From NCBI RefSeq assembly GCF_003325375.1, contig NZ_CP030862.1, forward strand, positions 2,421,501-2,485,500: DNA of 64,000 bases, written 5' to 3'. Shown here one piece after another: positions 12,063-59,903 of the stretch. A program made the translations under genes and the position numbers. Under the pieces are notes generated by a model that saw nothing but the letters and a program-made list of their open reading frames with translations, made no database searches and was not told where the DNA came from. This DNA comes from Streptomyces globosus. GTDB taxonomy: Bacteria; Actinomycetota; Actinomycetes; Streptomycetales; Streptomycetaceae. Every line of letters starts with the position of its first letter. The stretch's first letter is position 1.

Positions 12063-12095
12063 TCCAACCCCGTTGCCGGGCTGGGGGGCGTCGCG

Positions 12096-12460
12096 CCGTG
12101 GTCTGGTCGGGAGCGGTCGGTTGCTCGCGAGGAGCGTGATTTTGATCGGCGAAGCCGATCCGGAGTTCGGAGTGACGAGGTATTCGGTCAGCGTAGCTGT
12201 CCCGGAACTCGTCGGGTCTTGATGACGTGCCGTTCCGACATGATCCCGCATCAGCACCCTTAGACGGTAGGCCTTGGCGCAGGAGCCAGAGGACATCACG
12301 CCGTGGTCTGGCCGGGAGCGGCCGGATTGCTCGGCGAAGAACGCGAGGTCGATCGGCGAAGCCGATCCGGGGCTCGGAATGACGGCGCATTCGATCAGCG
12401 CAGCTGATTCGGGTGAAGCACTGGAAGAGAAGATCATCTGATCGGCGAAGCCGATCCGGA
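12096..12460. repeat. Imperfect direct repeats carrying GATCGGC-type palindromes
   Basis: Unit A (about 12096-12203) and unit B (about 12301-12411) share CCGTGGTCTGG, GGGAGCGG, the palindrome GATCGGCGAAGCCGATCC, and then a second, looser palindrome. They lie about 205 bp apart. A partial third unit at 12421-12460 keeps only the main palindrome. No gene is seen between 12062 and 12860. Confidence 0.7.
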
Positions 12461-12860
12461 TGGGGACATGGCGGACAACTCAATCTCAGCCCGATCAGCC
12501 AACTGCGCTCGGACGACGTCGTCGATCCGGGCGCTTTGCTGTATCCGATGAGAAAAACTCAGGCCGAACGCTCCGAACAACGGACAGCGGGGCCAATCGT
12601 CGGCGCGGCCCAGACAGTTCTCGGCCAGAACCTGGCAGCAGTCGGTTCGGTGAAGTTCGAGGCCCTGTACGGCCGCGGGTGCGCATTTCGAAGCCGTCGG
12701 ATTCGGTAGCGGGCGCATGGCAAAACGGCCCGTCTGGCTTTGTGTTGCACCCATCGGGGTTGGCCGCGACCAGGCCGGATCCCGCACTTGAACCCCTTTC
12801 CCTGAACACCCATGTAACGGCAGCGCTTTGTGCTGCCCGCGCAGTAGGAGGAGAAACCTG

Positions 12861-15806
12861 ATGAATCACGAGTCCACGAAGTTGTCGGTCGCGTTCAGCG
12901 GGGCCGACAACACGAGTAAGACCACGCAGATCGGCCCGCCGGCCCGCCGGACCGGTCCGGCTGCGGCGCCCGCCGGCGCCCTGCACGACCACGACTCTTC
13001 TGCGAAGGACGCCACTACCGGCTTCCCGCCGGCCAAGCAGGTGGCCGTGATACTTCCCCGACCGGCGAGGACGGCGGGACCGTGGTCCGACAACGACCGT
13101 CTCGCCTCGGTCCTGACCGAACTTGTGGGCACCCGTGTCACGGTCGTCGAACTCCAGGACACGGACACGGACACCGATCTCCGGTCGCTGCCGGACCGTA
13201 CCGCCTTCGCCTCCGTGCTGTGGTGCCAGCTGAGGGCACTGCCCACCGCCGAGTGCAGCCGTGCCCTCCTTGACGACCAGGGAATCAGGGTGTGGACGGG
13301 CAAGGAGGCCGACGAGGGAGCCGCCTACAGCTTCGGACATCTTGCTCTGCGCGCCCACGCCGCCTGCATCGTCAACTGCCCGCCGCGCGCCAAGGCAACC
13401 GTGATCGAGACTGTCCGGCACCTCATCGAGGAGCATCACGTTCCGTTCCACGGACGTGAGCACGGACTGGTGCCCCTGACCGACGGCGACCAGCGGGCAC
13501 GGCTCCTGCTCGGAGGGAAGGACGTGTCGCTGCGCAGACTTGCTCCCGTCTTGCCGGAAGTGCATGTCGACCGTGGCCACACGCTCACCTGGACGGCGTG
13601 GCAAGACAACCGGGCAGCCGCACTCCGCGACATCCGCCGCGTCTACGGCACCTCGCCCGTGATCGTCCGCAGCTGCGCCGTTGCCGAAGACTCCTGGGAG
13701 CGCTCGGCCGCCGGCGAATACGACAGTGTGCCTGTGACCGGTGGCGGTGACACGCTTCTGGCCCAGGCGATCACCAAGGTGTTCGCCTCCTACCCGGCCC
13801 CCGACGCCGCCAACAAGGTGCTCGTCCAGCGCTTTCTGCAGCCGGTGCTCGCCGCCGCAGTGGTGACCACCCGCACAGTGTCCGGAGCGCCCTACTACGT
13901 GGCGGCGCTCGACAGCACCTCAGGGCGCACGGACACGGTCACCAGCGGCACCGGAGACCACGTCGACACCTGGTACGTCCACCGGGACAGCCTGGGGCGT
14001 GTTCTGGAGAACCCGTCCGCTCACGGCCTGCCGGACTTCGCCGCCCGCGTTTTGGGGGCAGCGGCCCAGACGGAGGATGCGGCAGGGACGAACCGCCTCG
14101 ACACCGAACTGGCGATCACCGAAGACGGCGTGCACCTGCTGCAGGTCAGGCCGCTTGCCGCGGGGCGGGGCCGGACGACCGACGACGCCCAGATTACCGC
14201 CATCCTGTCGGCAGCCCGGCGGAGAGTCGAGGACATGAGCATCTCGGACAACCGTCTGCTCGGAGACCGGCCCGCCCTGTCCTGTATGGCGGACTGGAAC
14301 CCTGCCGAGATGCTGGGCCGGCGACCTCGCCCGCTCTCCATCTCGCTCTACCGCCACTTCATCACCGATTTGTCATGGGCACGGCAGCGAAAGGAGTACG
14401 GGTACCGCGATCTGCGTGGTGTCCCGCTCATGCACACCCTGGCCGGACACCCCTACATCGACGTGCGCGCGTCGTTGGCCTCCTTCCTGCCGGCCGACCT
14501 CAGTGAGAAGCAGGCGCGCGAGGTGCTCCAGGCACAGATCGCGCGACTGAGCCAGGACCCGGACTCGCACGACAAGATCGAATTCGAGATCGCGGCCACC
14601 TGCTGGACGCCCGATCTGAGCCAGCGCACCTCCTACCTCACACAGTCGGGAGTCGGCCAGACGACCCTCGACAACCTGCACGACCATCTCCTGCGCATCA
14701 CGCGGACCGGCATCGCCCGGCTGACGGGCGACATGAACGATCTCGCCCAGCTGGGTCTGCCGACGGAGAAGGACACCCACCCCAGTCGCCTCGAGGCCAC
14801 CCTCGAACGGACGCGCCGCGCGGGCCAGGTCTTCGCTCATCTCGCCCGCGCCGGCTTCGTAGCCGTCGACCTGCTGCGCTCGCTGCGCGAGGCGGGGCAG
14901 GCCGACCGCTACGACGACTGGATGCGTGGTCTCGGGACCGTCACCACGCACATGCAGCGCGACGCCGCCGAGGTTGCCGCAGGTCGCCTGAGCTGGGAGA
15001 CGTTCGTCGACCGGAACCGATGGATCCGACCCGGTACCTACGACCTCACGGTCCCCAGTTATGGGCAGGACCCGGAAGGCTACCTCCGCCCTCTGCTGGA
15101 CCAGGTCTACCACGTCGAACCTCTTTGCGGCGCTCCGTGGTCCCCAGAGCTCAGCCACCAGGTCTCCGGCGTACTGGAGCCCCTGGGGATCGATGCGGAC
15201 GGTGCGGAGGACTTCTTCCGCAAAGCCATAACCGCCCGCGAACACGGCAAGGCCGTCTACGCGGCATGGGTCAGCGCCTCACTGGAAACCATCGCGACGC
15301 TGGGTGGAACCGCTGGCCTGAGCCGCGACGACATCACCCACCTCACCATCGCCGACCTCCTGACCACACCCTCGGACACCTGGCCTGCGACCGTACTTCG
15401 CCGTCGGGCCATTGGGGCCGCGGAGGCGCAGGTGGAACTGCCCGAGGTCATCACCGACACCGGCGACCTGCACTGCTTCCGCCGGGGATCGGGGCGCACG
15501 AACTTCATCGGCACCGGACGCGTGGACGGACGTGTGCACGCTGCTCCCGCACCGGCCAGCCCGCCGGAGTCCGGCAGCATCATCGTCATCGAATCCGCCG
15601 ACCCCGGCTACGACTGGATCTTCGCTCACCGGCCGGGAGCACTGGTGACCGCATACGGCGGGGCCAACAGCCACATGGCCATCCGGTGCGCAGAACTCGG
15701 CATCCCGGCAGCCATCGGAGCCGGCCCCCAGTCCCATGCCGCCTGCGCCGTCGCCGACCGCCTGGTCGTCGACTGCGACGCACGCCGACTGGAGGTGATC
15801 CGGTGA
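12861..15806 (+). CDS. PEP-synthase-like glutamine kinase (phosphoramidate pathway)
   Basis: 981 aa from ATG 12861, with a strong AGGAGGAG site at 12845-12852. The N-terminal nucleotide-binding half has VIVRSCAVAEDSWERSAAGE, matching the PEP-synthase/PPDK ATP-grasp line 'RSS..ED...S.AG'. The C-terminal swivelling domain has AYGGANSHMAIRCAELGIP, where the His of the SH pair would carry the phosphate. In Campylobacter jejuni, Cj1418 has this architecture and converts ATP and L-glutamine to L-glutamine phosphate. The next two genes match Cj1417 and Cj1416, which makes glutamine kinase much more likely than PEP synthase. Its stop overlaps the next start. The substrate is inferred from gene context. 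Confidence 0.7.
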   Translation: MNHESTKLSVAFSGADNTSKTTQIGPPARRTGPAAAPAGALHDHDSSAKDATTGFPPAKQVAVILPRPARTAGPWSDNDRLASVLTELVGTRVTVVELQDTDTDTDLRSLPDRTAFASVLWCQLRALPTAECSRALLDDQGIRVWTGKEADEGAAYSFGHLALRAHAACIVNCPPRAKATVIETVRHLIEEHHVPFHGREHGLVPLTDGDQRARLLLGGKDVSLRRLAPVLPEVHVDRGHTLTWTAWQDNRAAALRDIRRVYGTSPVIVRSCAVAEDSWERSAAGEYDSVPVTGGGDTLLAQAITKVFASYPAPDAANKVLVQRFLQPVLAAAVVTTRTVSGAPYYVAALDSTSGRTDTVTSGTGDHVDTWYVHRDSLGRVLENPSAHGLPDFAARVLGAAAQTEDAAGTNRLDTELAITEDGVHLLQVRPLAAGRGRTTDDAQITAILSAARRRVEDMSISDNRLLGDRPALSCMADWNPAEMLGRRPRPLSISLYRHFITDLSWARQRKEYGYRDLRGVPLMHTLAGHPYIDVRASLASFLPADLSEKQAREVLQAQIARLSQDPDSHDKIEFEIAATCWTPDLSQRTSYLTQSGVGQTTLDNLHDHLLRITRTGIARLTGDMNDLAQLGLPTEKDTHPSRLEATLERTRRAGQVFAHLARAGFVAVDLLRSLREAGQADRYDDWMRGLGTVTTHMQRDAAEVAAGRLSWETFVDRNRWIRPGTYDLTVPSYGQDPEGYLRPLLDQVYHVEPLCGAPWSPELSHQVSGVLEPLGIDADGAEDFFRKAITAREHGKAVYAAWVSASLETIATLGGTAGLSRDDITHLTIADLLTTPSDTWPATVLRRRAIGAAEAQVELPEVITDTGDLHCFRRGSGRTNFIGTGRVDGRVHAAPAPASPPESGSIIVIESADPGYDWIFAHRPGALVTAYGGANSHMAIRCAELGIPAAIGAGPQSHAACAVADRLVVDCDARRLEVIR

Positions 15807-16465
15807 AGGAACCTGGATGGATCGCGATCACACAGCGCCACGTCCCCTACCCGCACCGATCCGAAGAAGGCGACTACCTGGACCGCCAGTGGTACGCCCT
15901 GGAAGCGGTCAGCAACCGACGCCTCCTGGCCGTACCGAACAATCTCCCCCTCGCTCAGCGCACACTGCGGGGCCTGCCCCTGGCGGCTGTGATCCTCACC
16001 GGCGGCAACGATCTGCCGTCCGTCCCGGACCCGAACGACGTGGCTCCTGAACGAGACCGCGTCGAAACGTGGCTCCTTGAGCAGGCGGAGGAACTGCGGA
16101 CACCAGTCATCGGCATCTGCCGTGGTGCTCAATCCATCGCCCACCGCTTCGGTGCCCGGCTCGTGGACGGACAGCACGGCCACTCCGGTACCCGCCACCA
16201 CGTCCGAAGCACAGGTGACGCCCCCTGGCCGTGGCCCGAGCAGTTCACTGTCGCCTCCCACCACCGCTGGGCCATCCCAGCCGATGGTCTGCCCGAACAA
16301 CTGCGCCCCCTCGCCCTGGCGGAGGACGACACCGTCGAGGCGTTCGCCCACCGTGACCTGCCCTGGTGGGGACTGATGTGGCACCCCGAGCGAGAGTTTC
16401 CCGCAGGTCCCGCCGCTGATGCCCTCACCTTCATCCTCAACCACTCCACGAATCCGTCCCACTGA
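15803..16465 (+). CDS. Class I glutamine amidotransferase-like hydrolase (gamma-glutamyl-CDP-amidate hydrolase type)
   Basis: 220 aa; the GTG start at 15803 overlaps the upstream stop as GTGA. The nucleophile elbow is VIGICRGAQSIAHRFGA with the catalytic Cys, and the His-Glu pair is in MWHPERE near the C terminus, so the class I amidotransferase triad is complete. TGGNDLPS near residue 65 forms the oxyanion side. The closest functional model by neighbourhood is Cj1417, which removes glutamate from CDP-L-glutamine to release cytidine diphosphoramidate. A PuuD-type gamma-glutamyl hydrolase is the alternative if the substrate differs. Confidence 0.75.
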   Translation: MKEPGWIAITQRHVPYPHRSEEGDYLDRQWYALEAVSNRRLLAVPNNLPLAQRTLRGLPLAAVILTGGNDLPSVPDPNDVAPERDRVETWLLEQAEELRTPVIGICRGAQSIAHRFGARLVDGQHGHSGTRHHVRSTGDAPWPWPEQFTVASHHRWAIPADGLPEQLRPLALAEDDTVEAFAHRDLPWWGLMWHPEREFPAGPAADALTFILNHSTNPSH

Positions 16466-16489
16466 TCCCAGACAAAGGAGCACCCGCAC

Positions 16490-17290
16490 ATGCGCACCAT
16501 CATCCTCGCGGCCGGCCGCGGTTCACGTCTCGGTCCGCTCACCGACCAGCGCCCCAAATCCCTCGTGCCGCTGGCCGGAATCCCCCTGCTGACCCGGCTT
16601 CTCAACGCCCTCCGTACCGCGGGGCTGAGTGACATCACCATCGTCACCGGCTACCAGTCGGACCTCATCAACAAGGCTGCTCCCGGCTGCCGGACCCTGC
16701 ACAGCCCCCGGTGGGCCCACACCAACATGGCCGCCAGCCTCCTGGTGGCCGCAGACGCGGGCCTGCTGGAGGACGGCGCTGTCATCTCCTACAGCGACAT
16801 CGTTGTTGAGCCTCGCGTCGTGACCACTCTGCTGAGCGCCCCGCGCGCTCCGCTGACCCTGCCAGTCAACACCGCCTGGCTCGATGTGTGGAGCGAGCGC
16901 ATGGCGGATCCCCTTGCCGACGCGGAACGCCTCATCCTCGACGCCAACGGAAGGTTGCTGGACATCGGCGGCGCCCCTCGTGGCCTGCACGAGGTGCATG
17001 CGCAGTTCATGGGACTCCTGCGTCTGGACCCGGACGGCGCCCGACAGCTCATCTCCTTCTACCGCGACGCCCTCGACGCCGACAGTGCAGCCGAGCACTG
17101 GGACACCACCACTCTCCTCAGCGCCTGGCTGAACGCCGGCGGAACAGCTCACACCGTGCCTGTCCGCGGCGGCTGGCTGGAGGTCGACACCCCCGAGGAC
17201 AAGGACCGCTACGAGGAACTGCACCGCCTTGGGCGCCTGGCCGCCATCTGCGCACTCGACACCACCGAAAAGGACGGCGACAACCGATGA
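16490..17290 (+). CDS. Nucleotidyltransferase, CTP:phosphoglutamine cytidylyltransferase type
   Basis: 266 aa from ATG 16490, with AAAGGAG upstream. The N terminus IILAAGRGSRLGPLTDQRPK is the nucleotide-binding signature of sugar-nucleotide/CTP transferases. DIVVEPRVV and GGWLEVDTPEDKDRY hold the metal-binding aspartates. Cj1416 of Campylobacter belongs to this superfamily and couples CTP to L-glutamine phosphate. Position after a kinase-like and a glutamine-hydrolase-like gene supports the same step here. The stop overlaps the following Mur-ligase start. Confidence 0.75.
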   Translation: MRTIILAAGRGSRLGPLTDQRPKSLVPLAGIPLLTRLLNALRTAGLSDITIVTGYQSDLINKAAPGCRTLHSPRWAHTNMAASLLVAADAGLLEDGAVISYSDIVVEPRVVTTLLSAPRAPLTLPVNTAWLDVWSERMADPLADAERLILDANGRLLDIGGAPRGLHEVHAQFMGLLRLDPDGARQLISFYRDALDADSAAEHWDTTTLLSAWLNAGGTAHTVPVRGGWLEVDTPEDKDRYEELHRLGRLAAICALDTTEKDGDNR

Positions 17291-18687
17291 CGAACACCCT
17301 CCCCAGCACCACACTCCCGACGGCTGTGCACTTCAGCGGTCTCGGTGGCAAGGGAATCGCCCCTGCCGCCTCCCTGGCCTTGGCCGCCGGCATGCGAGTG
17401 ACCGGCGACGACCTGGTGCCCAACCACCGCACTGACATCTTCACCGCCCACGGCGTACCGGTGGCTCTCGGCGTCAATCACATGCCCCGTGACGTCGACC
17501 TGCTCGTCTCCAGTGCGGCTGTGCCCGTGAACACGGCTGCCCCCATCCACCAGATGGGGCGGCTGGAATTCGTCCAGCACCTGTTCTCCGAGCACCGCAA
17601 GCGCATCCTGGCCGTCGCCGGATCGCTGGGCAAGTCCACTGCCGCAGCCATGGTTCACCGCATCCTGTCCCGTGTCGCTCCCTCCGCCTACATCGGAGCC
17701 GACGTGCCGGGGCTGCTGTGCGGCGGAGAACTCACGACCGGGGAATGGGCCGTGGTCGAAGCCTGCGAGTACCGCAGTGCCTACAGCGCACTGACCCCTG
17801 AGATCGTGATCGCCCTGAACATGGTGCAGAACCACGAGGACGATCTCGGCGCCGGAACGGCCGGGTTCGAGCGGAGCATGACCAGGTTTCTCACCGAAGG
17901 ACCCACTCCTCCCGGCCTGATCGTCATGCCCTCCGAGGTGGCAGGCCTGATGTCCCCCCACCTCGCCGCTGCCGGAACTGCCGGGCAGATCGAGGTGATC
18001 GGGGCCGGCGGTCCGTGGCAGGTTCACGTTCTGCGGCAGGACACCAAGGGCTCCACCTTCCGGCTCACCCATGGCGGGCGCGATGCCGGAACGTGGACCG
18101 TCCCCGCTCCCGGACCACATCTGATTCCCGGCGCAGCCTGCGGCATCGTCTCCGCGCTGCACCTCGGGCTCCAGACGAGCGACATTGCCGCCGGACTGGC
18201 TGACTTCCGTCTGCCGGGACGGCGCATGAGCGTCGTGCACTCGGACGAGCGACTGGTCGTCGTGGACGACAACGCACGTCAGCCGGATCAGGTCCGTGCC
18301 CTCATCCAGGCACTCCGCCAGGCCCACCCCGACCGGACCCTCGTCGTCGCGGTGGCCCCTTGGGGACGCCGCAACAAGCGGGACCTGACCGCCTGGCCGG
18401 AAGCGCTGTCCGGGGCAGACGCGGTATGGGTCCTGCCTGTCGGCGACAACGCGGCCCCGGGAGGGGAGGACCCGGACGCTGATGTCCGGCTTACCGCGTT
18501 GCTTCGCCGCTCGGGAACCGTCGCACACGCCATCGAGAATGACATGGACCTGCCAATTCCGGGAGGTGGTGCGAAGGGCCTCGTCATCGCCACCGCCGGC
18601 TACGACGCCAATGCAGCCGAATTCGCCACGCTGCACCGGCAGGCCGTCAACGCCCTCGGCAGTCCCGCACAGGAAGCCGGAGAGTAG
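17287..18687 (+). CDS. Mur-ligase family protein (MurC-like)
   Basis: 466 aa; ATG 17287 overlaps the upstream stop as ATGA. It starts with a MurC-like Rossmann part (HFSGLGGKGIAPAASLAL), then a P-loop ILAVAGSLGKSTAAAMVHR. Usual MurC/Mpl enzymes have GTHGKTT, so the loop is altered but keeps GK[ST]. VVEACEYR matches the metal-binding 'EacEY' line, ALNMVQNHEDDLG the 'iT-NI--DHlD' line, and VVDDNARQPDQV the 'v-DDYAHHP' line of MurC. The family joins an amino acid or peptide to a carboxylate using ATP. In this operon it may attach an amino group to a phosphoramidate-bearing intermediate; the substrate is unknown. Confidence 0.8.
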   Translation: MTNTLPSTTLPTAVHFSGLGGKGIAPAASLALAAGMRVTGDDLVPNHRTDIFTAHGVPVALGVNHMPRDVDLLVSSAAVPVNTAAPIHQMGRLEFVQHLFSEHRKRILAVAGSLGKSTAAAMVHRILSRVAPSAYIGADVPGLLCGGELTTGEWAVVEACEYRSAYSALTPEIVIALNMVQNHEDDLGAGTAGFERSMTRFLTEGPTPPGLIVMPSEVAGLMSPHLAAAGTAGQIEVIGAGGPWQVHVLRQDTKGSTFRLTHGGRDAGTWTVPAPGPHLIPGAACGIVSALHLGLQTSDIAAGLADFRLPGRRMSVVHSDERLVVVDDNARQPDQVRALIQALRQAHPDRTLVVAVAPWGRRNKRDLTAWPEALSGADAVWVLPVGDNAAPGGEDPDADVRLTALLRRSGTVAHAIENDMDLPIPGGGAKGLVIATAGYDANAAEFATLHRQAVNALGSPAQEAGE

Positions 18688-19659
18688 ATGTCCACCCGCC
18701 ACCGACCGGCACGCTTCACCGCCCTGCTGGTCACTACGCGCGAAGGGGCCGTCCTGCTCACGCAGGGCGGCCCCCGCCCCGGGGACCTACCCCACAGCAG
18801 AATTCGGACCCACGAGAACCCCTACAGCGCAGCACGACGTCTGGCAGCCGGCCTGAACCTCTCCCTCGCAGAGACAACGCTCCTGGCCGTCGACGAAGCC
18901 GAGGGTTGCAACGGACCGCAGACCGTCCATGTCATGTCCGCACGCCTGTCTCCCGGCAGTGCTCCACCCTCAGCCGGACACTGCCTGACCCCAGTGGGTC
19001 AGGCAACCGCTGCCATGACACCCTCTGCCGCGTCACGGCTGAAAGCCGTATGCCGGGCAACGATCCTCAACACCATGTCGCCGACCCGCCAGGAGCCCCT
19101 GAGGCTTGTCGAGGGCCGCAACCTTCTCCAACACGCAACCAAAGCAGAGCGAACCCGATCCCGCTTCACCTGGCATCCCGGCCTCACACCGCCCGAAGAG
19201 ATACCAGTGCAACAGACCTGGGGATGGCTCGTCGATCCACATGGCCGTGTTCTGGTGATGCTCGACCGGCACGGCGTTCCGAGCCTGCCGGGAGGGCGCC
19301 CCGAAGCCGGGGAGAGCCCCTGCGAAACCCTGGCCCGCGAGGCAGAGGAAGAAGTGCAAGCAAGGCTGAGCACCCCCTACCCGCTGGGCTATCAGCAAGT
19401 GCGGGAGCACGGCCGTCCGCCTTACGCTCAGTTGCGCATGGCAGCACTCCTGCGGGGCCTCGATTCCGCAGCCCCAGACCGCGACACCGGGGAGAAGTAC
19501 CAACGGGTACTCATTCCTGCTCGACAGGCGAACCTGCTGCTCGGCTGGGGGCCGGAGGGAGACGCACAAGCACACGCAGTCTCACGGATCTGGCCTCCCC
19601 GCACGACACGTCCCGCCCAGTACGTGCCTGAAACCGGCCTGGAGTTCACCGAGGAATGA
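18688..19659 (+). CDS. Tandem NUDIX-type hydrolase, N-terminal copy degenerate
   Basis: 323 aa; ATG 18688 follows the Mur-ligase stop directly. The C-terminal half has a full NUDIX box, GRPEAGESPCETLAREAEEE. The N-terminal half (residues about 8-130) has the general fold pattern (FTALLVTTREGAVLLTQGG) without the REXXEE residues, so it looks like an inactive copy. NUDIX enzymes cut nucleoside diphosphate linkages. As the last gene of the operon it could release a phosphoramidate group from a CDP carrier. That role is a guess. Confidence 0.75.
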   Translation: MSTRHRPARFTALLVTTREGAVLLTQGGPRPGDLPHSRIRTHENPYSAARRLAAGLNLSLAETTLLAVDEAEGCNGPQTVHVMSARLSPGSAPPSAGHCLTPVGQATAAMTPSAASRLKAVCRATILNTMSPTRQEPLRLVEGRNLLQHATKAERTRSRFTWHPGLTPPEEIPVQQTWGWLVDPHGRVLVMLDRHGVPSLPGGRPEAGESPCETLAREAEEEVQARLSTPYPLGYQQVREHGRPPYAQLRMAALLRGLDSAAPDRDTGEKYQRVLIPARQANLLLGWGPEGDAQAHAVSRIWPPRTTRPAQYVPETGLEFTEE

Positions 19660-19665
19660 CTGCAA

Positions 19666-19695
19666 GTGCTGCCTGGCCATCGGACCAGGCAGCAC
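19666..19695 (+). terminator. Hairpin terminator at the end of the phosphoramidate operon
   Basis: The 11-bp stem GTGCTGCCTGG / CCAGGCAGCAC with an 8-base loop starts seven bases after the last stop codon and lies before the convergent NUDIX gene. Confidence 0.85.
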
Positions 19696-19772
19696 ACGCC
19701 GCACCATGCACAGAGAGAAAACCGGCGGGCCTCCCCTGGGAGGGCGAACCCAGCCCAGACCCTCGACAGGGA

Positions 19773-20525
19773 CTAAGCGGAACCAGAAGAACCAGAAAAC
19801 GCAAAATTCCGGCGGACGATCGGCTGCAGGTAGTCCACTTGTTCCCCGGCAAGACGGGACAACTCGGCCTCGGAGTCGATCAGTGCGATCCTGTCGAGTT
19901 CAGAAGCCCGACCCTGTTCTCGCTCCGAGGACACCAAAGCCGCAAATCGTTGATGCAGGAATTCGGCGGGCAGAGCAGGGGCGCGAAACACAAAACCGAC
20001 ACTACCCCGCGCGCCACGCGTGACAACCCACAGAGACAGGGATTCGGGCAATGTGTCGATGCCGAGCTCCTCCATAAGCTCTCGTGCCGCATGTCGGCGC
20101 AGCGGAGCCACATCGAGAGACTCACCCCTAAGAGGGGGCTCCATGGAGCCCCCCGGCAGTTGCCATCGTCCGGGGGTGGACGTTGAAGAAGACATACGGG
20201 CCACCAAAAGACGTCCGTCCTCCGTCGGCTGGGCAACGCACACGAAAACGGATGAAACGGAGGGAGCGTCGGGAATCTGACGCAGCATACGGTATCTGTA
20301 TGCCGCCCTTGCCCAGGAGAGAATCAAACTCCCTGGTTCCTTCCACTCTACATCCATGCAAGCTACTGTGGGCCCATCGAAAAGGTTCGGATTTTCCTGA
20401 ACCGCTTCAGACCAAGCACGTTCCATCGTCAGGCGGTCTGGCTCAGAAATTGGGTGCCACGCCTTTTCGACAAAGCGGATGCGACGGACATCGAAAATCT
20501 CTACACCAGAGGATGCGTTAGTCAC
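19773..20525 (-). CDS. NUDIX hydrolase, convergent to the operon
   Basis: 250 aa from GTG 20525. The NUDIX box is PGGSMEPP followed by a short insertion and then RRHAARELMEELG, so the motif is spread by about eight residues compared with the standard box. The N-terminal 90 residues (ISEPDRLTMERAWSEAVQEN) are not part of the NUDIX fold and are unrecognised. It may act in the same metabolism as the operon it faces, but it has its own promoter side. Confidence 0.75.
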   Translation of the reverse strand: MTNASSGVEIFDVRRIRFVEKAWHPISEPDRLTMERAWSEAVQENPNLFDGPTVACMDVEWKEPGSLILSWARAAYRYRMLRQIPDAPSVSSVFVCVAQPTEDGRLLVARMSSSTSTPGRWQLPGGSMEPPLRGESLDVAPLRRHAARELMEELGIDTLPESLSLWVVTRGARGSVGFVFRAPALPAEFLHQRFAALVSSEREQGRASELDRIALIDSEAELSRLAGEQVDYLQPIVRRNFAFSGSSGSA

Positions 20526-20581
20526 TGACCTATGCTCTCACATCGCGTGCGACGTGCGAGCAGATTGGTCCGGATCGAAGG

Positions 20582-20707
20582 ATGGCGGTCTCTTTCCAGA
20601 ACGTCCATGCCGGCCACAGCTACACCTTCAGGAGTCAGGTGCGCCGGCTGATCCTCGGCGTACGCCAGTGGGGCACACCGTGCAGACCGACCACGGAAGA
20701 GGTTTGA
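20582..20707 (+). CDS. Possible 41-aa small protein
   Basis: ATG 20582 to TGA 20707 gives MAVSFQNVHAGHSYTFRS... with VRRLILGVRQWGTPC. Codon choice is coding-like, and a rho-independent-looking terminator follows at 20772-20830 on the same strand. The ribosome site is weak (GAAGG touches the ATG). The function is unknown; a non-coding RNA is the alternative. Confidence 0.35.
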   Translation: MAVSFQNVHAGHSYTFRSQVRRLILGVRQWGTPCRPTTEEV

Positions 20708-27304: not shown

Positions 27305-28603
27305 TCAAGACACCGCCCTACTGTGCTTGCCCGCGGGCTTCGCGGCGAGGGCCTGCTGCTCGACGTGCCGTGCCGCGATGTACAGGCCCTCGCGGTTCAG
27401 GTGCCGCGAGTAGCTCGAGTCGAGGTAGAGCACGGGCACATCGCCGGCGGCCTTCAGAAGCGCAGGGTGCAGCAGGTGCTTGATGGGGCCCGAGCCGCCG
27501 CCGTAGACGTAGACGACCTCGGTCGTCGCACCGGCCTGGGAGAGGACGTCGCCGAAGGAAGAGACGATCTCGTCGACCAGGTAGCCGGCCTCGTCCTCGA
27601 CGAAGCCGACGGCGCGCTGGTGACGATTCCTCACCAGCACAGACGGCTTCGCGTGGAGGAAGTCCGCCAGCTGCTTGCGCGAGGAGAACTGCAGCGTGGC
27701 GTCCGACTCACTCATGCGCTCCATGGCGTTCATCAGCGCGGTGCCGTAGCCCTCGTCGAGCGTGGCTGCCGCCTCGGGGTTGAAACGCCCATCGGTGAAG
27801 ACCGGGAAGTTCACGGTGCCCTCACCGACATCGACACCGATGGTGTTCTGCACCGCCACCAGATCGGAGGCCGAGACCCCTTCCACCACGGATGCGTCGC
27901 GAGTGCGCAGATCATCGAGAAGAGCCTGGGCCAGCGGTTCGCCCTTGTCGGTGATGGCGAACTGCGCGGAGGCACCCTCGGCCATCACCTGAACGTCGAC
28001 GAACTGCAGGCGCACCGAGACCGGGGTGCTGAAGTTCTTGATCGTCACCAGGTGCACCGCGGGGTCGGAGCTGCCCAGCAGGCCGATGAACTCTGCGGCG
28101 TAGGCGTGGCGGCGCGCGACGAACTCGGAGATCGGTAGCGCCAGGCCGGCGCGTACCTGCACGCGCAGCTCGTGAGCGGGCAGCGCGCCGTTCTCGCGGA
28201 CGTAGTCGCGCAGGGCCTTCGCGGCGAAGACACCCAGGACCAGGACCTTGCTCAGCTCCTGATCAGCCTTGGAGTGCTTGCCCAGTACCTCGAACTCGGT
28301 GAACTTCGAGCCGCGCACGCTCAGCGCTGCCCGGCCGAAGATCCGGCGGTCCGACGCCGCCACCAGGGTTGTGGTGAGGGAGCAGTCGATCTGGTTGTAG
28401 AAGTCTCCGGCCATCACGGAGGCCGCATCCGCGTCGGGGAGCGGCACCTTCGGCGAGGTGCGGGACGTCGAGACGACTGCGCTGGGCAGATCGATCTCGT
28501 CGAAGATCTCCCGCTTCGTATTCTGGATGACGCCCTTGACGTAGCCGTTGCCGACGTCGATGCCGCCGGTGAGGGTGATGATGTCGTTGCTGTTGGCGCT
28601 CAT
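27305..28603 (-). CDS. ParM/StbA-like actin-type plasmid segregation ATPase
   Basis: 432 aa from ATG 28603. All three actin-fold nucleotide signatures are present: phosphate-1 GGIDVGNGYVKGVI (residues 13-26), phosphate-2 IGVDVGEGTVNFPVF (about 252) and the adenosine line YVYGGGSGPIKHLL (about 355). Such proteins polymerise with ATP and push plasmid copies apart when capped by a ParR-DNA complex. The gene upstream encodes a ParR-like protein. The C-terminal basic tail ends AGKHSRAVS. Confidence 0.85.
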   Translation of the reverse strand: MSANSNDIITLTGGIDVGNGYVKGVIQNTKREIFDEIDLPSAVVSTSRTSPKVPLPDADAASVMAGDFYNQIDCSLTTTLVAASDRRIFGRAALSVRGSKFTEFEVLGKHSKADQELSKVLVLGVFAAKALRDYVRENGALPAHELRVQVRAGLALPISEFVARRHAYAAEFIGLLGSSDPAVHLVTIKNFSTPVSVRLQFVDVQVMAEGASAQFAITDKGEPLAQALLDDLRTRDASVVEGVSASDLVAVQNTIGVDVGEGTVNFPVFTDGRFNPEAAATLDEGYGTALMNAMERMSESDATLQFSSRKQLADFLHAKPSVLVRNRHQRAVGFVEDEAGYLVDEIVSSFGDVLSQAGATTEVVYVYGGGSGPIKHLLHPALLKAAGDVPVLYLDSSYSRHLNREGLYIAARHVEQQALAAKPAGKHSRAVS

Positions 28604-45824: not shown

Positions 45825-48800
45825 TCAGTACCCCATCCCGTAGTCGTCGTCGACTTCGGGCTGATCGATCTCGATGCTCGGCGTGTAGACCGGGCGCCTC
45901 GCGCCCGCGGCCACGGCATGCGCGGAGCGGCGCTGCGAGCCTCGGGTGCGGGACGCCGCCGCGTCTTGAGAGATCACGTCGCGCTTGACCACCGAGTCAT
46001 CGACGGCGATCACGGCGTGGTCCAGGCTGTGCCTTCCGGTGGAGCCCAGCTGATCCAGCTGCCACGACATCTGCACCCGAGCCTTCAGAGCCGCCGAGGA
46101 CGCGAACTGCTCGTTCTTCTCGCCGTCGTAGACGCTCTCACGGTTCTTGGCCGCCTCGACCAGATCGGCGAACGCGCCGGCGTAGGCCATCCGGTCCATC
46201 AGGGTACCCCGCAGCGACACGTCTTCTTCCAAGTTGCGGATGAGCCCGGTCGCCGGGTCCTCCAGCGCACTGGCCACGCGGGCCACGTACTCCGGGTTGA
46301 CCCTGACCCCGAAGCCGTCCTTCGATTCGTAGAACTCGATGAACTGCTTTTCCCACTCCTCGGCCGCAGCCTGGACGGGCTCACCGTCCAGGAATGCCGT
46401 GCGCCACTGGCCCGGGCCGACACGTTCGATGCTGCGGCCCCTCCAGAGATCACGGCCGGGGCCCTGGAGCATCGCGTATTTGTGCCGGGCCTCGGCAGCG
46501 TCGTGCTTCGCCTGCAGGATCGACTGGGTCACCGGGTAGGTGACCTCCAGGACGGCCTTGAGATCCTCGCCGCGCAGCGCGCGCACGGCGCGCTGGCTGA
46601 ACGCGCCACCCAAGCCGGTGCCGTGGGACTTGATCGCCGTGGCGAACATCGAGGCTTCCTGGTCGGATTGGGTGATGCCGGGCGTGCCCTGTGCATCGCC
46701 CAGGTTCCGGGCGTAGTCCTCGAGCTTCCTCTCGCTCCCCTTCGCGCCGGTCCTGACACAGACCTCGCGCACGCTCTGCAGGTGTGCCTCGCGATCCGCG
46801 AACGTCAGAGCCGCACCGAACTCACCACGCTGCGCCCGGCGGTACAGCCCGCTCAGCTCTTCCGTCACGAACTGCTGGGCGAGCCTGACGTCCTCCGGCG
46901 AATCCGAACCCGTGAGGGCCCGCAGCCGGAGCCGGTTGGCCTCGCTCCGCGAACTCTCCAACTCATGGGCCATTCTGGCGTTCTTGGAGAGCGCGACCTG
47001 GGTGTCCAGCGACACCTGCATGGCCAGCGGGTGTGAACCATCGCCCCTGACCACTCCGGTGTCCAACAGGTTGGCCGGCACCGAGAGCTTTGCCAGGGCC
47101 TCGGCCTTGGCTGCCTCGCTGTGCAGCTTCACCACGGCGACGGCATCACCGTCGAAATCGCCGTCGAAGCAGGCGTCCATGACCGGGTTGATCGCCGCGC
47201 CGGTGAGCCGGTCGTCGATCGCCACCCGCATGTAGCGCACACCGGCGTCACGGAGCACCGGGTCACGCCACACCAGCGCGTGGTCGCCCTCGGCGAGCCC
47301 CAACTTCGCAGCCTTGACCGAGCTGAGGGCGACTTGGTCGACGTCCAGCCGTGGGTCTGCGGTCCACACCATCGTCGCCGAGTCGGTGAGCCGTGAGGAC
47401 ATCAGCCCGGTCTTGAAGATGTTGCTCGTGCCCGTCAGCACTCGGTTCTGGACGTCGGTCGTGATTGCTTCGAAGGCGCGCTGAGCGCGCGAGACCGATT
47501 CGCTCATGCCGCGACGCACCTCGGCGCGCTTCTCGGCAGGCAGACCCTGGCTGTCCAGCTGCTCGGCCATGTAGCGGTAGCGGCAGGCCTCCACGAAGAC
47601 GTCCTGGTAGCTGCGGGTGTAGTCGTGCGTGACGGAGGACCCGTCCTCGAACTCCTGACCACTACGCAGATGCGAGGACATCACCGGCAGCTTCCACGAG
47701 CTCGCGCTCACCGTCTCGGTCTGCTCACCGGTCGGATACGTGAGCGGAAACGGGATCTCCATGTCGCCACCGCGGTCGCCGATGAGGTCGCCGAAGGACT
47801 CGCGCATCGCCATGATGTTCAGTCCCGGGAGCTGGCCCGCCCTGCGCGGCTGCGTGCGCAGCAAGTCGGGCATCGGGATGAACCGGCGCTCGGTACGCTC
47901 GTCGAGGCCCTCGGCCTGGCCGATCACGCGCAGCGTGCCGTCAGCGTCCATGTCCATGCCGGATACCAGCAGGTACTCACGCAGGCTCGACTCGGCCCCG
48001 CTGTTGTGGCCGTAGAACTCGCGCATGATCGCCGGACAGTCCTGAGACTGCAGCGCCCAGGCCAGTTGAGCGGAGGCCTTACGGCCCTTGCCGGCACGCA
48101 CCTGCTCGTCGTCGTAGATCTTCGTCTTCTCGTCGACGGCCATATGGGTGACCACGAAGCGCATCTCGCCCAGGGCACTCGGCCGCAGTTCTCCGTTGGG
48201 CGAGCGCAGATCGGAGACGTTCCCGCTCATCAGCTCGCGCGCCGAGCCCGCGTTGCGCCGGGAGATGAGGCTGAACGGACTCATCACCACGTCCAGACCC
48301 GGGTTGGCGCGGAACCAGTTCACCTCTTCGACAACGGCCTGCCGCTGCGCGTCGTGCAGAGGCATGTCCCGGTCGACGATCAGCGAGATCACGCCCTTGT
48401 TGCCGTGCAGATCCGAGATCTTGTCGCCCACGACGAGATCGCGCTCCCGACCGCCGGTCCCGCGGATGCGGTGGCGCCCGGCGAATTCCTTCGACACGAC
48501 GATCGGGTCATCAGCCGTCCAGCCGCCGAAGGTCATCAGCGCCGTCTTCGCCGGTGCGGTGACCTCGGAGGACTGCATGATCGTCGAGGCCGTCATCTGC
48601 TGACGGTCGAACGGGTCGTACCGCAGCGTCTCGAGCTCGGGGAGAGCCATGAGCGGCGCACGCTGTCCGGCCACGCTCTCGTCGCCCGGCACGATCCGAC
48701 CATCGCTGCCGACCTGGGCCTGAGTGGTCAGGTACCGCACGATGCCCTGGTTGGTCGCGCCCCCGGTCATCACCGGGTCGAAGTAGCCGCCGGGCGCTGC

Positions 48801-51377
48801 CACGTTGTTCCGGTCCTTGCCGGTGAGCACCGCCATGTTCCGCCCGCCGGTGAGCCGCCAGGCGTCGAAGTGGTTGTCATCAGCCGGGTCGGTTCGGTCG
48901 CGCTGGGCCCTGTACTCGGCGTAGACGGTTGAGCCGGCCTTGATCTCGTTGGAGTAGCGCACACGGCGCGCCTCGGTCTGCAGGATCGCTGCCGTCCACT
49001 CGTCCAGGTGTGCCTTGAACTCGCCGGTGGACTCGTCCCGCCGGTACGTGGTGGCGCGCTCGATGTAGTCGACGGGGTGCCTGGTGCCGTAAAGCTGTGA
49101 GTAGACCGTGTTGAGTGAGGAGGGCTCGCCGGTCTCGCTCCGCCCGGTGATGACGTCACCGGCGATCTGGTACTGGATGCGCTCGTGCATGAGCTGCTCG
49201 TAGCCGCGCAGGCGCGTGCGCTCCTCGACCGAGGTCGGAGCCTCGCCTGGGGTCTGGGCCGTGATCGTGGCCTGGTAGCCGGGCACGATCAGGGCGTTCT
49301 GCCCGCCGGCGAAGGCGGTGGTGATCTCGCCGTACTCGCCGACATCGAACACCTGGCCGATCTCGCCCGAGATCGGAGTTCCCTTGCCGTCACGGCGAAG
49401 CTTCTCGCCACTCCAGCGAATGACGCCGTGATCGTCGACCAGGATCTCGGCGACCGTCGCCGCGTTGCGCTCGATGCTCTCGCGCACGGTGACCCCGATA
49501 CGCCGCATGAACGCGGATTCGTGATCGGCGATCGGCACGGAACGCTCGGCGTTGAAGCGGACGAGCCGGTCCTTGAACCGGGTCGTCTGGAAGGTCGAGC
49601 CCATGATCTCGTCAGGGGAGATCTCGCAACGACGAAGCGCTGAGGCGAGGTTGTCGAGGTTCGACCACTGCCCGGTGGGGCTGGTCATGTATCGCGCCAC
49701 CCGCTCCGGGTTGAAGCGCTGATCGACCCACTCGCCGTCGACGTCGTGGGGCTCCGCCTCCCAGGTCCCGATGAGTTCGAAGGGAACGTCCTCAGCGTGC
49801 TGTCGGACCTTCTCGACGGCGGTGCCGCCGTAGACGAGGTTGCCCATCTCGGGCGTCTCCTCGGCCTGCAGCTCGCCGATCTCCTCCAGCCGTTGCCGGT
49901 ACAACTCTTCGGTCGCACCCGGGCGCAGCAGTTCGCTGTGGGCGCCTGTGAGCACGTCCCAGTACGAGCGCTGGATCGCAGCGACCTCGGAGTCAGCCGA
50001 GTACTCCGGCGGTTCGATCGCATCCAGCTGTCCGCCGGTTCGCTCCAGCTCCGTCTCGGCACGGGCAATGAGGTCCTCGACGCCGAGGGCTGCCCGCAGG
50101 TTCTCCCGAGCGCTCTCGACGGCGGTCTTCGCATAGGCCGCGGCCGACTCGGTGTCGATGAAAAAGGCCGGCAGTGAGCGGTTCTTCGCGTCCCGGCGCA
50201 GCATCACCTTCGAGCCGGGCCTAGGGCCGGACTCACCGGGGGCCACGTAGTCGCCGACCACGAACATCGAATCACGGTCACCGTGGTAGCTGTCGGGCAC
50301 ATCCACCACCATGCGGCCACGGCCGCGCTCCTGGTGCGTCGCGCCGGTCTCGCCGGCGGCGCGCCCCGGAACATCCGTACGCTCGACGCGATGTCCCTGG
50401 GCGAAGCGCAGTAGTTGGACGGCCTCCGCCGGCGAGGGGGAGTAGACCGCCGTGCCGCCGGGAACCCGGTGGTTCGTCGAGTAGCGCAGCACGGTGCCCT
50501 TGTCGTATATCCGAGCTCCGGCGTACTCCTCCTGGCGTGTGTCGATGAGGCGGATCTCCATGCCGGTCCCGGCGATCTTCGCCTTGATCTGACCTGGCTC
50601 GCGGTCGCGCATCACCGCGTAGGACACGCCCTGGGCCTTCAGCTCTTCGAGCAGTGCTGCCGAGCGCGCCACGGCGCGCCGGGACATGAAGCGGTTGCCG
50701 TCGACGCGGTTCGTCTGCGGGTTCCGGCTGCCGTCGATGACCCACTCGCGCACCTGGTCGTACTCCTGCCGGCTCATCTTGTCCATGAGCGCGGTGAGTC
50801 CCGCGGCGTCGTCGATCGTCATCGCGCGGCCTGCCTGGAACGGCCGGCCGTTGTCGTCGATGCCCCAGAGCACCATGTTCCCGCGCCGCGGGTCGGCCAG
50901 GGTCTCCACCTCGCCGCCGGCCACGCGTCCGATCGTCTCGTCCGGCAGGTACAGCAGCGCGGTTCCGGCGCGCTTCACGGTCGCGCGTTCGGACCAGGCG
51001 GGGTCATAGGGGCTGATCGGCAGCCGGGCCGACTGCGAGTCGACCTGGGCACCGACACCGGTGACGCGGGTGAACTCCCGCTGCAACTGCTGATAGCGCT
51101 CGTTCCGGGGGGAATGATCACCGAACTGCGGCTCGTAGTCGGACACCTTCTCCGCGAACGCCTGGTCGATGGCGGAGAGGCAGTCCGCGATGCCCAGCCG
51201 GGGGTCGGCCAGTGCGGTGGCCCGCCGGCCGAGGATCTCGTCGACTCGGGCGCGGATCGCCTTGGCCTGGGAGATCGGAATGACCTGTCCGGCCTGCATC
51301 CTGGCCTGCTCGACTGCCTTGTAGTAGACGTACTCGTAGAAGTACTTCCGCAGTCCGCGCGCCTTCTTCATAGTCAA
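45825..51377 (-). CDS. Single-chain, two-barrel DNA-dependent RNA polymerase (beta and beta-prime catalytic parts fused)
   Basis: 1850 aa from TTG 51377 (GGAAG five bases upstream); ATG two codons later at 51371 is the alternative start. Near residue 980 GDKISDLHGNKGVIS matches the beta-subunit line 'GDK.aGRHGNKGVIS' with both catalytic lysines. It is followed by LDVVMSPFSLISRRNAGSAR, which matches 'vDivlNPlGvpsRMNiGQ'. Near residue 1400 MDACFDGDFDGDAVAVV matches the beta-prime 'NADFDGDqMAVH' Mg-binding loop. After it come bridge-helix-like GAKGSERKLEDYARNLG and trigger-loop-like IKSHGTGLGGAFSQRAVRAL. Order beta then beta-prime in one chain recalls the YonO type of phage SPbeta. No alpha, omega or sigma gene is seen nearby. 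Confidence 0.9.
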   Translation of the reverse strand: MTMKKARGLRKYFYEYVYYKAVEQARMQAGQVIPISQAKAIRARVDEILGRRATALADPRLGIADCLSAIDQAFAEKVSDYEPQFGDHSPRNERYQQLQREFTRVTGVGAQVDSQSARLPISPYDPAWSERATVKRAGTALLYLPDETIGRVAGGEVETLADPRRGNMVLWGIDDNGRPFQAGRAMTIDDAAGLTALMDKMSRQEYDQVREWVIDGSRNPQTNRVDGNRFMSRRAVARSAALLEELKAQGVSYAVMRDREPGQIKAKIAGTGMEIRLIDTRQEEYAGARIYDKGTVLRYSTNHRVPGGTAVYSPSPAEAVQLLRFAQGHRVERTDVPGRAAGETGATHQERGRGRMVVDVPDSYHGDRDSMFVVGDYVAPGESGPRPGSKVMLRRDAKNRSLPAFFIDTESAAAYAKTAVESARENLRAALGVEDLIARAETELERTGGQLDAIEPPEYSADSEVAAIQRSYWDVLTGAHSELLRPGATEELYRQRLEEIGELQAEETPEMGNLVYGGTAVEKVRQHAEDVPFELIGTWEAEPHDVDGEWVDQRFNPERVARYMTSPTGQWSNLDNLASALRRCEISPDEIMGSTFQTTRFKDRLVRFNAERSVPIADHESAFMRRIGVTVRESIERNAATVAEILVDDHGVIRWSGEKLRRDGKGTPISGEIGQVFDVGEYGEITTAFAGGQNALIVPGYQATITAQTPGEAPTSVEERTRLRGYEQLMHERIQYQIAGDVITGRSETGEPSSLNTVYSQLYGTRHPVDYIERATTYRRDESTGEFKAHLDEWTAAILQTEARRVRYSNEIKAGSTVYAEYRAQRDRTDPADDNHFDAWRLTGGRNMAVLTGKDRNNVAAPGGYFDPVMTGGATNQGIVRYLTTQAQVGSDGRIVPGDESVAGQRAPLMALPELETLRYDPFDRQQMTASTIMQSSEVTAPAKTALMTFGGWTADDPIVVSKEFAGRHRIRGTGGRERDLVVGDKISDLHGNKGVISLIVDRDMPLHDAQRQAVVEEVNWFRANPGLDVVMSPFSLISRRNAGSARELMSGNVSDLRSPNGELRPSALGEMRFVVTHMAVDEKTKIYDDEQVRAGKGRKASAQLAWALQSQDCPAIMREFYGHNSGAESSLREYLLVSGMDMDADGTLRVIGQAEGLDERTERRFIPMPDLLRTQPRRAGQLPGLNIMAMRESFGDLIGDRGGDMEIPFPLTYPTGEQTETVSASSWKLPVMSSHLRSGQEFEDGSSVTHDYTRSYQDVFVEACRYRYMAEQLDSQGLPAEKRAEVRRGMSESVSRAQRAFEAITTDVQNRVLTGTSNIFKTGLMSSRLTDSATMVWTADPRLDVDQVALSSVKAAKLGLAEGDHALVWRDPVLRDAGVRYMRVAIDDRLTGAAINPVMDACFDGDFDGDAVAVVKLHSEAAKAEALAKLSVPANLLDTGVVRGDGSHPLAMQVSLDTQVALSKNARMAHELESSRSEANRLRLRALTGSDSPEDVRLAQQFVTEELSGLYRRAQRGEFGAALTFADREAHLQSVREVCVRTGAKGSERKLEDYARNLGDAQGTPGITQSDQEASMFATAIKSHGTGLGGAFSQRAVRALRGEDLKAVLEVTYPVTQSILQAKHDAAEARHKYAMLQGPGRDLWRGRSIERVGPGQWRTAFLDGEPVQAAAEEWEKQFIEFYESKDGFGVRVNPEYVARVASALEDPATGLIRNLEEDVSLRGTLMDRMAYAGAFADLVEAAKNRESVYDGEKNEQFASSAALKARVQMSWQLDQLGSTGRHSLDHAVIAVDDSVVKRDVISQDAAASRTRGSQRRSAHAVAAGARRPVYTPSIEIDQPEVDDDYGMGY

Positions 51378-59685: not shown

Positions 59686-59719
59686 GCCACACAAGACCTC
59701 TCGACAGGACTGGCGATCC

Positions 59720-59750
59720 GACTGTGAAATCAGTCGAAATCTATCATGCG
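59720..59750 (-). promoter_or_regulatory. Promoter/operator-like element ahead of the Clp gene
   Basis: On the minus strand GATAGATT (-10-like TAGATT). On the plus strand GTGAAATCAGTCGAAATC has two GAAA units, here spaced 10 bp. Confidence 0.4.
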
Positions 59751-59903
59751 CCACACTCGATAGGGCGTGCAGTGATAGGCAAAAGGGCTCGTGAGGGCAT
59801 TCGTGGATGGGTCTTGGAAGGCGGCCGCGTGATCAGTGCTCGACTTCTCGTACGCGTAGGTCGTGCACTCCAGTGGATCAAGACGATTCCGTGTAGCCGA
59901 AAT

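What the first reader, a model, noticed from the sequence alone, without database searches (positions are those of the whole stretch)
12861..19659. Cytidine diphosphoramidate-type pathway with two extra enzymes
The order PEP-synthase-like kinase, class I glutamine hydrolase, CTP transferase matches the Campylobacter Cj1418-Cj1417-Cj1416 route to cytidine diphosphoramidate, with overlapping stops and starts. A Mur-ligase and a tandem NUDIX protein follow in the same operon, which the capsule pathway does not have. This suggests a phosphorus-nitrogen-bearing natural product or surface modification carried by an actinomycete plasmid.
Basis: partly seen in the sequence, partly recalled or inferred. 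Interest (0 to 1): 0.85.

Follow-up and report, generated by a model that had tools for sequence, protein, structure and literature searches.

The report
Phosphoramidate operon with a Mur-type ligase
A rare set of five neighbouring bacterial genes looks like a known three-enzyme route for making a phosphorus-nitrogen bond on a cytidine carrier, joined to two enzymes not seen beside that route in the loci surveyed, which suggests an undescribed phosphorus-nitrogen small molecule.

Summary
The five genes are real and at the stated place. Kinase, glutamine-hydrolase and nucleotidyltransferase belong to the family trio that makes cytidine diphosphoramidate in Campylobacter: the kinase passes the family's curated cut-off, the hydrolase's best model is gamma-glutamyl-CDP-amidate hydrolase (below cut-off), and 65 of 78 other loci keep this order. 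A divergent MurC-like ligase and a NUDIX hydrolase follow. The same five genes recur in Streptomyces toxytricini (95-98% protein identity) and, with different flanks, in Nocardiopsis metallicus (44-61%): a conserved, transferable unit. Elsewhere, including two other Streptomyces, the trio sits with a CDP-amidate-kinase-like gene and a methyltransferase; this operon and its flanks have neither. All three cassette kinases replace a family histidine by tryptophan, and the ligase lacks motifs of true MurC, so substrates may differ. Best reading: a CDP-amidate-type core diverted from glycan decoration to a phosphoramidate metabolite. The chemistry is inferred, the product unknown. The plasmid claim is not supported: the window lies in a chromosome-sized contig, near conjugation-type genes. 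A new variant of a known kind.

The parts
12861..15806 (+). Gene A: phosphohistidine-type kinase of the L-glutamine kinase (Cj1418-like) family, with an extra N-terminal region (about residues 57-212) seen only in the cassette versions
   Evidence: NF004508 626.9 bits over cut-off 501; PPDK_N and PEP-utilizers; mobile-domain His938 conserved in 99% of 90 rows; His to Trp at 721 in all three cassettes
15803..16465 (+). Gene B: class I glutamine-hydrolase, gamma-glutamyl-CDP-amidate hydrolase type
   Evidence: NF045546 best model, 116.2 bits, cut-off 250 not met (all four control GATs also miss it); Cys106, His194, Glu196 conserved in 99-100% of 84 rows
16490..17290 (+). Gene C: MobA-like nucleotidyltransferase, the phosphoglutamine cytidylyltransferase position of the trio
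   Evidence: PF12804 65.4 bits; AAGRGSRLGPLTDQRPK motif; D103 invariant in 82 rows
17287..18687 (+). Gene D: divergent MurC-like ligase
   Evidence: TIGR01082 146.8 bits, cut-off 335.1 not met; P-loop GSLGKS, EACE, QNHE, DDN; 61% identical to the Nocardiopsis copy
18688..19659 (+). Gene E: NUDIX hydrolase with degenerate N-terminal NUDIX-like half
   Evidence: PF00293 46 bits at 180-237; full Nudix box GRPEAGESPCETLAREAEEE; N-terminal half 14.9 bits, below cut-off
12846..12851 (+). AGGAGG ribosome binding site of gene A
   Evidence: sequence read

Best explanation
The operon makes a phosphorus-nitrogen metabolite on a cytidine carrier. A phosphorylates the nitrogen of a carboxamide (probably L-glutamine) from ATP through a phosphohistidine; C couples the product to CTP (CDP-glutamine); B removes glutamate to leave cytidine diphosphoramidate. 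Instead of the next steps of capsule decoration (3'-phosphorylation, O-methylation, transfer to a sugar), D, a MurC-like ligase that keeps the nucleotide-binding and acyl-activating motifs but has a remodelled amine site, makes an acyl-N bond on the nucleotide-borne substrate, and E, a NUDIX hydrolase, cleaves the diphosphate to release CMP and a phosphoramidate product. Shown here: gene content, family membership, catalytic motifs, five-gene co-inheritance. Inferred: every substrate and the order of steps D and E.
For: A passes the curated cut-off of the family (626.9 against 501); so does the Nocardiopsis copy (572.3). B's best model is gamma-glutamyl-CDP-amidate hydrolase by a wide margin. 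65 of 78 other trio-type loci keep the order kinase-hydrolase-nucleotidyltransferase on one strand. D and E travel with the trio: exactly five genes are syntenic with L010, flanks are not, and against L010 all five look to be under purifying selection. Each of A, B and C places the three cassettes as one clade with full support and a long stem. Of 118 trio-neighbour proteins from other loci, 20 hit APS_kinase and 33 Methyltransf_11; none of 119 queries (these plus the L103 kinase-like protein) matches the window, L009 or L010 except at gene C, while Streptomyces L100 and L103 have such matches, which serves as positive control.
Against: No chemistry was tested. In A the near-invariant His of the YGHLRPGTYDI motif (84 of 90 rows) is Trp in all three cassettes, so the acceptor may not be glutamine. 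B misses its curated cut-off (116 against 250), although a Helicobacter trio member misses it too (234.5) and three others score 99-141. Nothing shows that D binds a cytidine rather than a uridine nucleotide. No transporter or resistance gene was identified in the operon, and only three occurrences are known, two of them nearly identical.
Confidence: 0.45

Rival explanations
1. The kinase has changed acceptor: the cassette N-phosphorylates something other than glutamine (another amide or amine), so B and C act on an analogue of CDP-glutamine and the product is a different P-N compound.
For: H721W, C272, A798 and L729 differ from near-invariant family residues in all three cassettes; stem of the cassette kinase clade is long, 1.57 changes per column; a unique N-terminal region.
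Against: B keeps Cys, His, Glu and most of the other most conserved residues of the gamma-glutamyl hydrolases, which argues that a gamma-glutamyl group is still removed. The role of His721 is unknown.
Confidence: 0.22
2. D and E act on UDP-MurNAc or another cell-wall nucleotide, so the P-N group is put on a peptidoglycan-type precursor (modification, or an antimetabolite of wall synthesis).
For: D is nearer MurC than any other Mur ligase model and keeps the GxGGKG nucleotide loop; a second Mur ligase gene lies next to the cassette in Nocardiopsis; MurA- and MurB-like genes lie near a related NUDIX gene on a Streptomyces plasmid.
Against: The host has its own MurC over the cut-off at G000:C1:1971789 (458 bits). 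D lacks the DDYGHHP and PHRYxRTRD motifs of true MurC, which I recall as the alanine-binding region. The second Mur ligase is not in the window.
Confidence: 0.13
3. Ordinary surface decoration: the operon supplies CDP-amidate for a phosphoramidate on a glycan, as in Campylobacter, with transferases elsewhere in the genome; D and E are accessory.
For: The trio is the same; canonical-looking versions exist in Streptomyces (L100, L103).
Against: No CDP-amidate-kinase-like gene or MeOPN-type methyltransferase was found in or near the cassette; the cassette trio is not sister to the other Streptomyces copies.
Confidence: 0.12
4. A is a phosphoenolpyruvate synthase or rifampicin-phosphotransferase-like enzyme and the neighbours are unrelated.
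For: PPDK_N and PEP-utilizers domains; PEP synthases are the only solved relatives found.
Against: PEP synthase models score at most 39 bits and the rifamycin phosphotransferase model 23.8, against 626.9 for NF004508; no pyruvate-barrel domain hit; trio order conserved.
Confidence: 0.02

Closest known systems
Campylobacter jejuni O-methyl phosphoramidate (MeOPN) capsule pathway, Cj1418-Cj1415 (locus numbers recalled; L-glutamine kinase and 3'-phospho-CDP-amidate intermediate seen in passages of PMC6429109)
   Same: Kinase, hydrolase and nucleotidyltransferase families; their order is the common one among relatives.
   Different: No CDP-amidate kinase or methyltransferase found; instead MurC-like ligase and NUDIX; extra N-terminal region and Trp721 in the kinase.
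   Same: Same families, same genus.
   Different: They carry APS-kinase-like and methyltransferase genes of the MeOPN type and lie in another clade of the kinase tree.
MurC, UDP-N-acetylmuramate--L-alanine ligase
   Same: Overall family, P-loop, activating Glu and His.
   Different: Less than half the curated cut-off; GTHGKTTT is GSLGKSTA, DDYGHHP is DDNARQP, PHRYxRTRD is PWGRRNKRD; the host has a separate MurC.
Phaseolotoxin cluster, PhtL (PPDK/PEP-synthase-like protein postulated to form its N-P bond; passages of PMC11278893)
   Same: A PEP-synthase-like protein postulated for P-N bond formation in a small molecule.
   Different: No sequence comparison was made here; the two share only the superfamily as described in the paper.
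Nucleotide phosphoramidate natural products of Streptomyces: phosmidosine, EM2487, 1100-50, K-563 (PMC6429109 and PMC6434342, passages only)
   Same: Nucleotide (cytidine in 1100-50 and K-563) and phosphorus-nitrogen chemistry in Streptomyces.
   Different: K-563 is described with alkylamine and oxygenated cyclopentane units, for which the five genes offer no enzyme; no link to this operon was found.

Membership tests
L-glutamine kinase (Cj1418 family, NF004508) | Curated family score | tested here: met
   626.9 bits, cut-off 501
L-glutamine kinase (Cj1418 family, NF004508) | ATP-grasp and mobile phosphohistidine domain, no pyruvate-barrel hit | tested here: met
   PF01326 and PF00391 only at E<=0.001; His938 in 99% of 90 rows
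L-glutamine kinase (Cj1418 family, NF004508) | YGHLRPGTYDI motif in the central region | tested here: not met
   N/Y-R-W-I/V-RPGTYDL in the three cassettes; His in 84 of 90 rows, Trp in 3, Phe in 1, gap in 2
L-glutamine kinase (Cj1418 family, NF004508) | Uses L-glutamine as acceptor | not testable with these tools
   needs enzyme assay
gamma-glutamyl-CDP-amidate hydrolase (NF045546) | Curated family score | tested here: not met
   116.2 bits, cut-off 250; all four control GATs tested from other trio loci also miss it: 234.5, 140.7, 99.5, 102.6
gamma-glutamyl-CDP-amidate hydrolase (NF045546) | Class I Cys-His-Glu | tested here: met
   C106, H194, E196
phosphoglutamine cytidylyltransferase | NTP-transferase motif and metal-binding Asp | tested here: met
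   D103 and R137 in 100% of 82 rows
phosphoglutamine cytidylyltransferase | CTP and phosphoglutamine as substrates | not testable with these tools
   needs assay
complete MeOPN pathway | CDP-amidate kinase (APS-kinase-like) and O-methyltransferase near the trio | tested here: not met
   no match of 119 neighbour queries in window, L009 or L010 other than at gene C; matches present in L100 and L103
MurC (TIGR01082) | Curated family score | tested here: not met
   146.8 bits, cut-off 335.1
MurC (TIGR01082) | P-loop, Glu, His of the Mur ligase core | tested here: met
   GSLGKS, EACE, QNHE
MurC (TIGR01082) | DDYGHHP and PHRYxRTRD motifs (alanine-site role recalled) | tested here: not met
   DDNARQP and PWGRRNKRD
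NUDIX hydrolase | Nudix box | tested here: met
   GRPEAGESPCETLAREAEEE; PF00293 over cut-off
Tandem NUDIX (two full domains) | Two domains over cut-off | tested here: not met
   only one passes; N-terminal half 14.9 bits in the window copy and no hit in the Nocardiopsis copy
Anti-phage defence | PADLOC model hit beyond a shared NUDIX core | tested here: not met
   only PDC-S07, 19.6 bits on the Nudix box of E

The most novel reading that the evidence does not exclude
Cytidine diphosphate serves as an assembly handle for a phosphorus-nitrogen peptide: the MurC-like ligase builds amide bonds on a CDP-linked glutamyl or acyl amidate much as MurC builds peptides on UDP-MurNAc, and the NUDIX enzyme then releases a finished N-acyl phosphoramidate. 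This would be a new logic for making P-N natural products.
Probability: 0.2. Interest if true: 0.85.

Novelty: new variant of a known kind. Interest (0 to 1): 0.62.

Why it matters
Enzymatic P-N bond formation is known in few pathways. A 2022 review (PMC9561416, passage) calls the glutamine kinase 'C. jejuni-specific', but relatives of it lie in Acidobacteria, Planctomycetes, Bacillota, archaea and Streptomyces. This cassette separates the P-N core from glycan decoration and pairs it with a ligase and a NUDIX enzyme, giving a compact, expressible five-gene system for asking how actinomycetes could make phosphoramidate small molecules. If right, the trio becomes a genome-mining hook, with its neighbours telling the fate of CDP-amidate.

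Tried and rejected
Structure prediction of the kinase's extra N-terminal region (mean pLDDT 37) and of gene E (44.5), each on an alignment of three sequences, was too poor to use; no fold search was run. Pfam finds nothing for the N-terminal region at E<=1. Two AlphaFold jobs were the cap, so the kinase core and the ligase were not modelled.

Anti-phage defence was considered and dropped. The EM2487/K-563 family was considered as product and not adopted, for lack of matching enzymes. Looking for further copies: P0004 (gene D) at E<=1e-30 in 2 of 392 genomes of the genus, 1 of 200 of the Nocardiopsis family (only G777 itself), 1 of 394 of the class (own only); gene A at E<=1e-20 in 7 of 295 of the genus and 1 of 396 of the phylum (own only); viral contigs none; plasmids only distant kinases (14 records); phages one distant kinase. 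No sigma-70-type promoter was found at 12300-20600 (0, against 0.4 expected) and no terminator on the + strand.

Rows dropped: the search for related loci kept 80 of 355 relatives. Of the 135 neighbour ORFs picked, I gave 118; the 17 left out were 12 minus-strand ORFs, 3 of L041 (near-copy of L035) and 2 others. Trees left out L045, L059, L068 and duplicate loci, and also L016, L028 and L073 for gene B. The gene B part was cut from view, so gene B is cited. In the residue counts five Streptomyces genes are counted twice (L091-L095 are the same genes as L099-L103), and two rows (L045, L059) appear mis-framed.

Papers: no paper holds phosphoramidate + Mur ligase + biosynthetic gene cluster, nor phosphoramidate + Streptomyces + gene cluster + nudix; 'CDP-glutamine' gives none. 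This library lacks most subscription journals, so absence there is weak. The original Raushel paper asked for was not held; that work is known here from reference lists and recall.
Full report
What is there. Five genes lie on the + strand at 12861-19659: A 12861-15806, B 15803-16465, C 16490-17290, D 17287-18687, E 18688-19659. A/B and C/D overlap by 4 nt, D/E abut, B/C are 24 nt apart. A strong AGGAGG precedes A. No promoter of the sigma-70 type was found, nor a + strand terminator, so the operon is inferred from spacing.

The trio. A matches NCBIfam NF004508 at 626.9 bits, cut-off 501; PEP synthase models score 39 at most. B's best model is gamma-glutamyl-CDP-amidate hydrolase (116.2 bits, cut-off 250; next model 50.7). 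The cut-off is strict: all four GATs tested from other trio loci miss it too (99.5 to 234.5). C is a MobA-like nucleotidyltransferase. A scan of one genome per species found 355 relatives of A, of which the best 80 were kept. In the 78 of them outside the cassette, 65 have kinase, hydrolase, nucleotidyltransferase in that order on one strand (54 within 5 kb), 5 another arrangement, 8 are incomplete. Catalytic residues of all three are kept.

Two extra genes belong with it. In Nocardiopsis metallicus (L010) the same five genes follow in order at 44-61% identity, and no other window gene finds a syntenic partner (the one further gene-level hit is a NUDIX gene at another place and orientation). 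dN/dS against L010 is 0.24-0.38 (dS 1.2-1.7, near saturation, so these are rough). In S. toxytricini (L009) the block and its flanks are about 98% identical to the window, so the window and L009 count as nearly one observation; there dN/dS is 0.30-0.41 for A, C and D, 0.93 for E and 1.38 for B, the last on very few changes. A, B and C each place the three cassettes as one fully supported clade with a long stem (1.57, 1.23, 1.29 changes per column), apart from the other Streptomyces copies where shown.

A different fate for the P-N unit. Neighbours of the trio elsewhere are rich in methyltransferases (33 of 118 hit Methyltransf_11) and APS kinases (20 of 118), as expected for a route to O-methyl phosphoramidate. 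When these 118 and one APS-kinase-like protein of L103 were used as queries, Streptomyces loci L100 and L103 gave 53 and 54 matches, while window, L009 and L010 gave one each, at gene C. Thus the genus holds canonical-looking versions, and this cassette is not one of them. Gene D was found in 2 of 392 genomes of the genus, and A in 7 of 295.

Clues to substrates. In A the family's YGHLRPGTYDI reads RWIRPGTYDL; His is present in 84 of 90 rows, Trp only in the three cassettes. A also has about 150 extra residues (57-212) at the N-terminus, 41% identical between window and Nocardiopsis, matching no Pfam family. D keeps the P-loop, Glu and His of Mur ligases but replaces DDYGHHP and PHRYxRTRD, seen in the true MurCs shown, by DDNARQP and PWGRRNKRD, the same or nearly so in Nocardiopsis. 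That these motifs bind alanine is recalled, not tested. The host has a proper MurC elsewhere (458 bits). E has one full Nudix box; the N-terminal half is degenerate.

How it most likely works. ATP + glutamine gives N-phosphoglutamine (A); CTP gives CDP-glutamine (C); hydrolysis gives cytidine diphosphoramidate (B). D then makes an acyl-nitrogen bond on a nucleotide-linked substrate and E cuts the diphosphate. The first three steps rest on family membership, the last two on fold family, motifs and co-inheritance only. I give about 0.75 that the trio does CDP-amidate-type chemistry and 0.45 to the whole scheme.

Setting. The window is chromosomal: G000:C1:2421501-2485500, and C1 exceeds 6.5 Mb of a 7.54-Mb genome. 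It holds a VirD4-like coupling protein, so the cassette may be cargo of an integrated conjugative element; its ends were not mapped. Related NUDIX genes lie on Streptomyces plasmids, two of the three looked at beside FxLD-type RiPP genes, and lanthipeptide-type genes flank the Nocardiopsis cassette; whether this is meaningful is open.

Verdict. It is a new variant of a known kind: a CDP-amidate-type core with a ligase/NUDIX branch not found in the held literature.

Noticed in passing
window 45825-51377 (-): A single 1850-aa ORF carries both RNA polymerase halves: an Rpb2 domain 6 hit with GDKISDLHGNKG and an Rpb1 domain 2 hit (just under cut-off) with DFDGD, in order beta then beta'. It looks like a one-chain RNA polymerase in an actinomycete conjugative-type region.
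   Followed up: partly
window 51537-55583 and 57919-59754 (-): VirD4-like conjugal coupling protein (CD1115 family, 153.6 bits, below cut-off 250) and a ClpA/ClpB-like AAA protein beside the RNA-polymerase-like ORF.
   Followed up: no
window 27305-28603 (-): Weak actin-like (MreB-like C-terminal) hit, 21.8 bits, below cut-off: possible plasmid-segregation actin.
   Followed up: no
window 19773-20525 (-): A second NUDIX protein, convergent with the operon, not syntenic in Nocardiopsis.
   Followed up: partly
window 12086-12531: Several direct repeats of about 22 nt (TGATCGGCGAAGCCGATCCGGA) within a duplicated stretch of roughly 205-207 nt spacing just upstream of the operon; the S. toxytricini copy differs there.
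   Followed up: no
L096 and L098 (Streptomyces plasmids): Distant relatives of gene E sit in plasmid clusters with FxLD RiPP methyltransferase, PIG-L deacetylase, phosphotransferases and, in L096, MurA- and MurB-like genes.
   Followed up: no
L100 and L103 (unnamed Streptomyces genomes): Canonical-looking phosphoramidate loci with APS-kinase-like and methyltransferase genes inside Streptomyces.
   Followed up: partly
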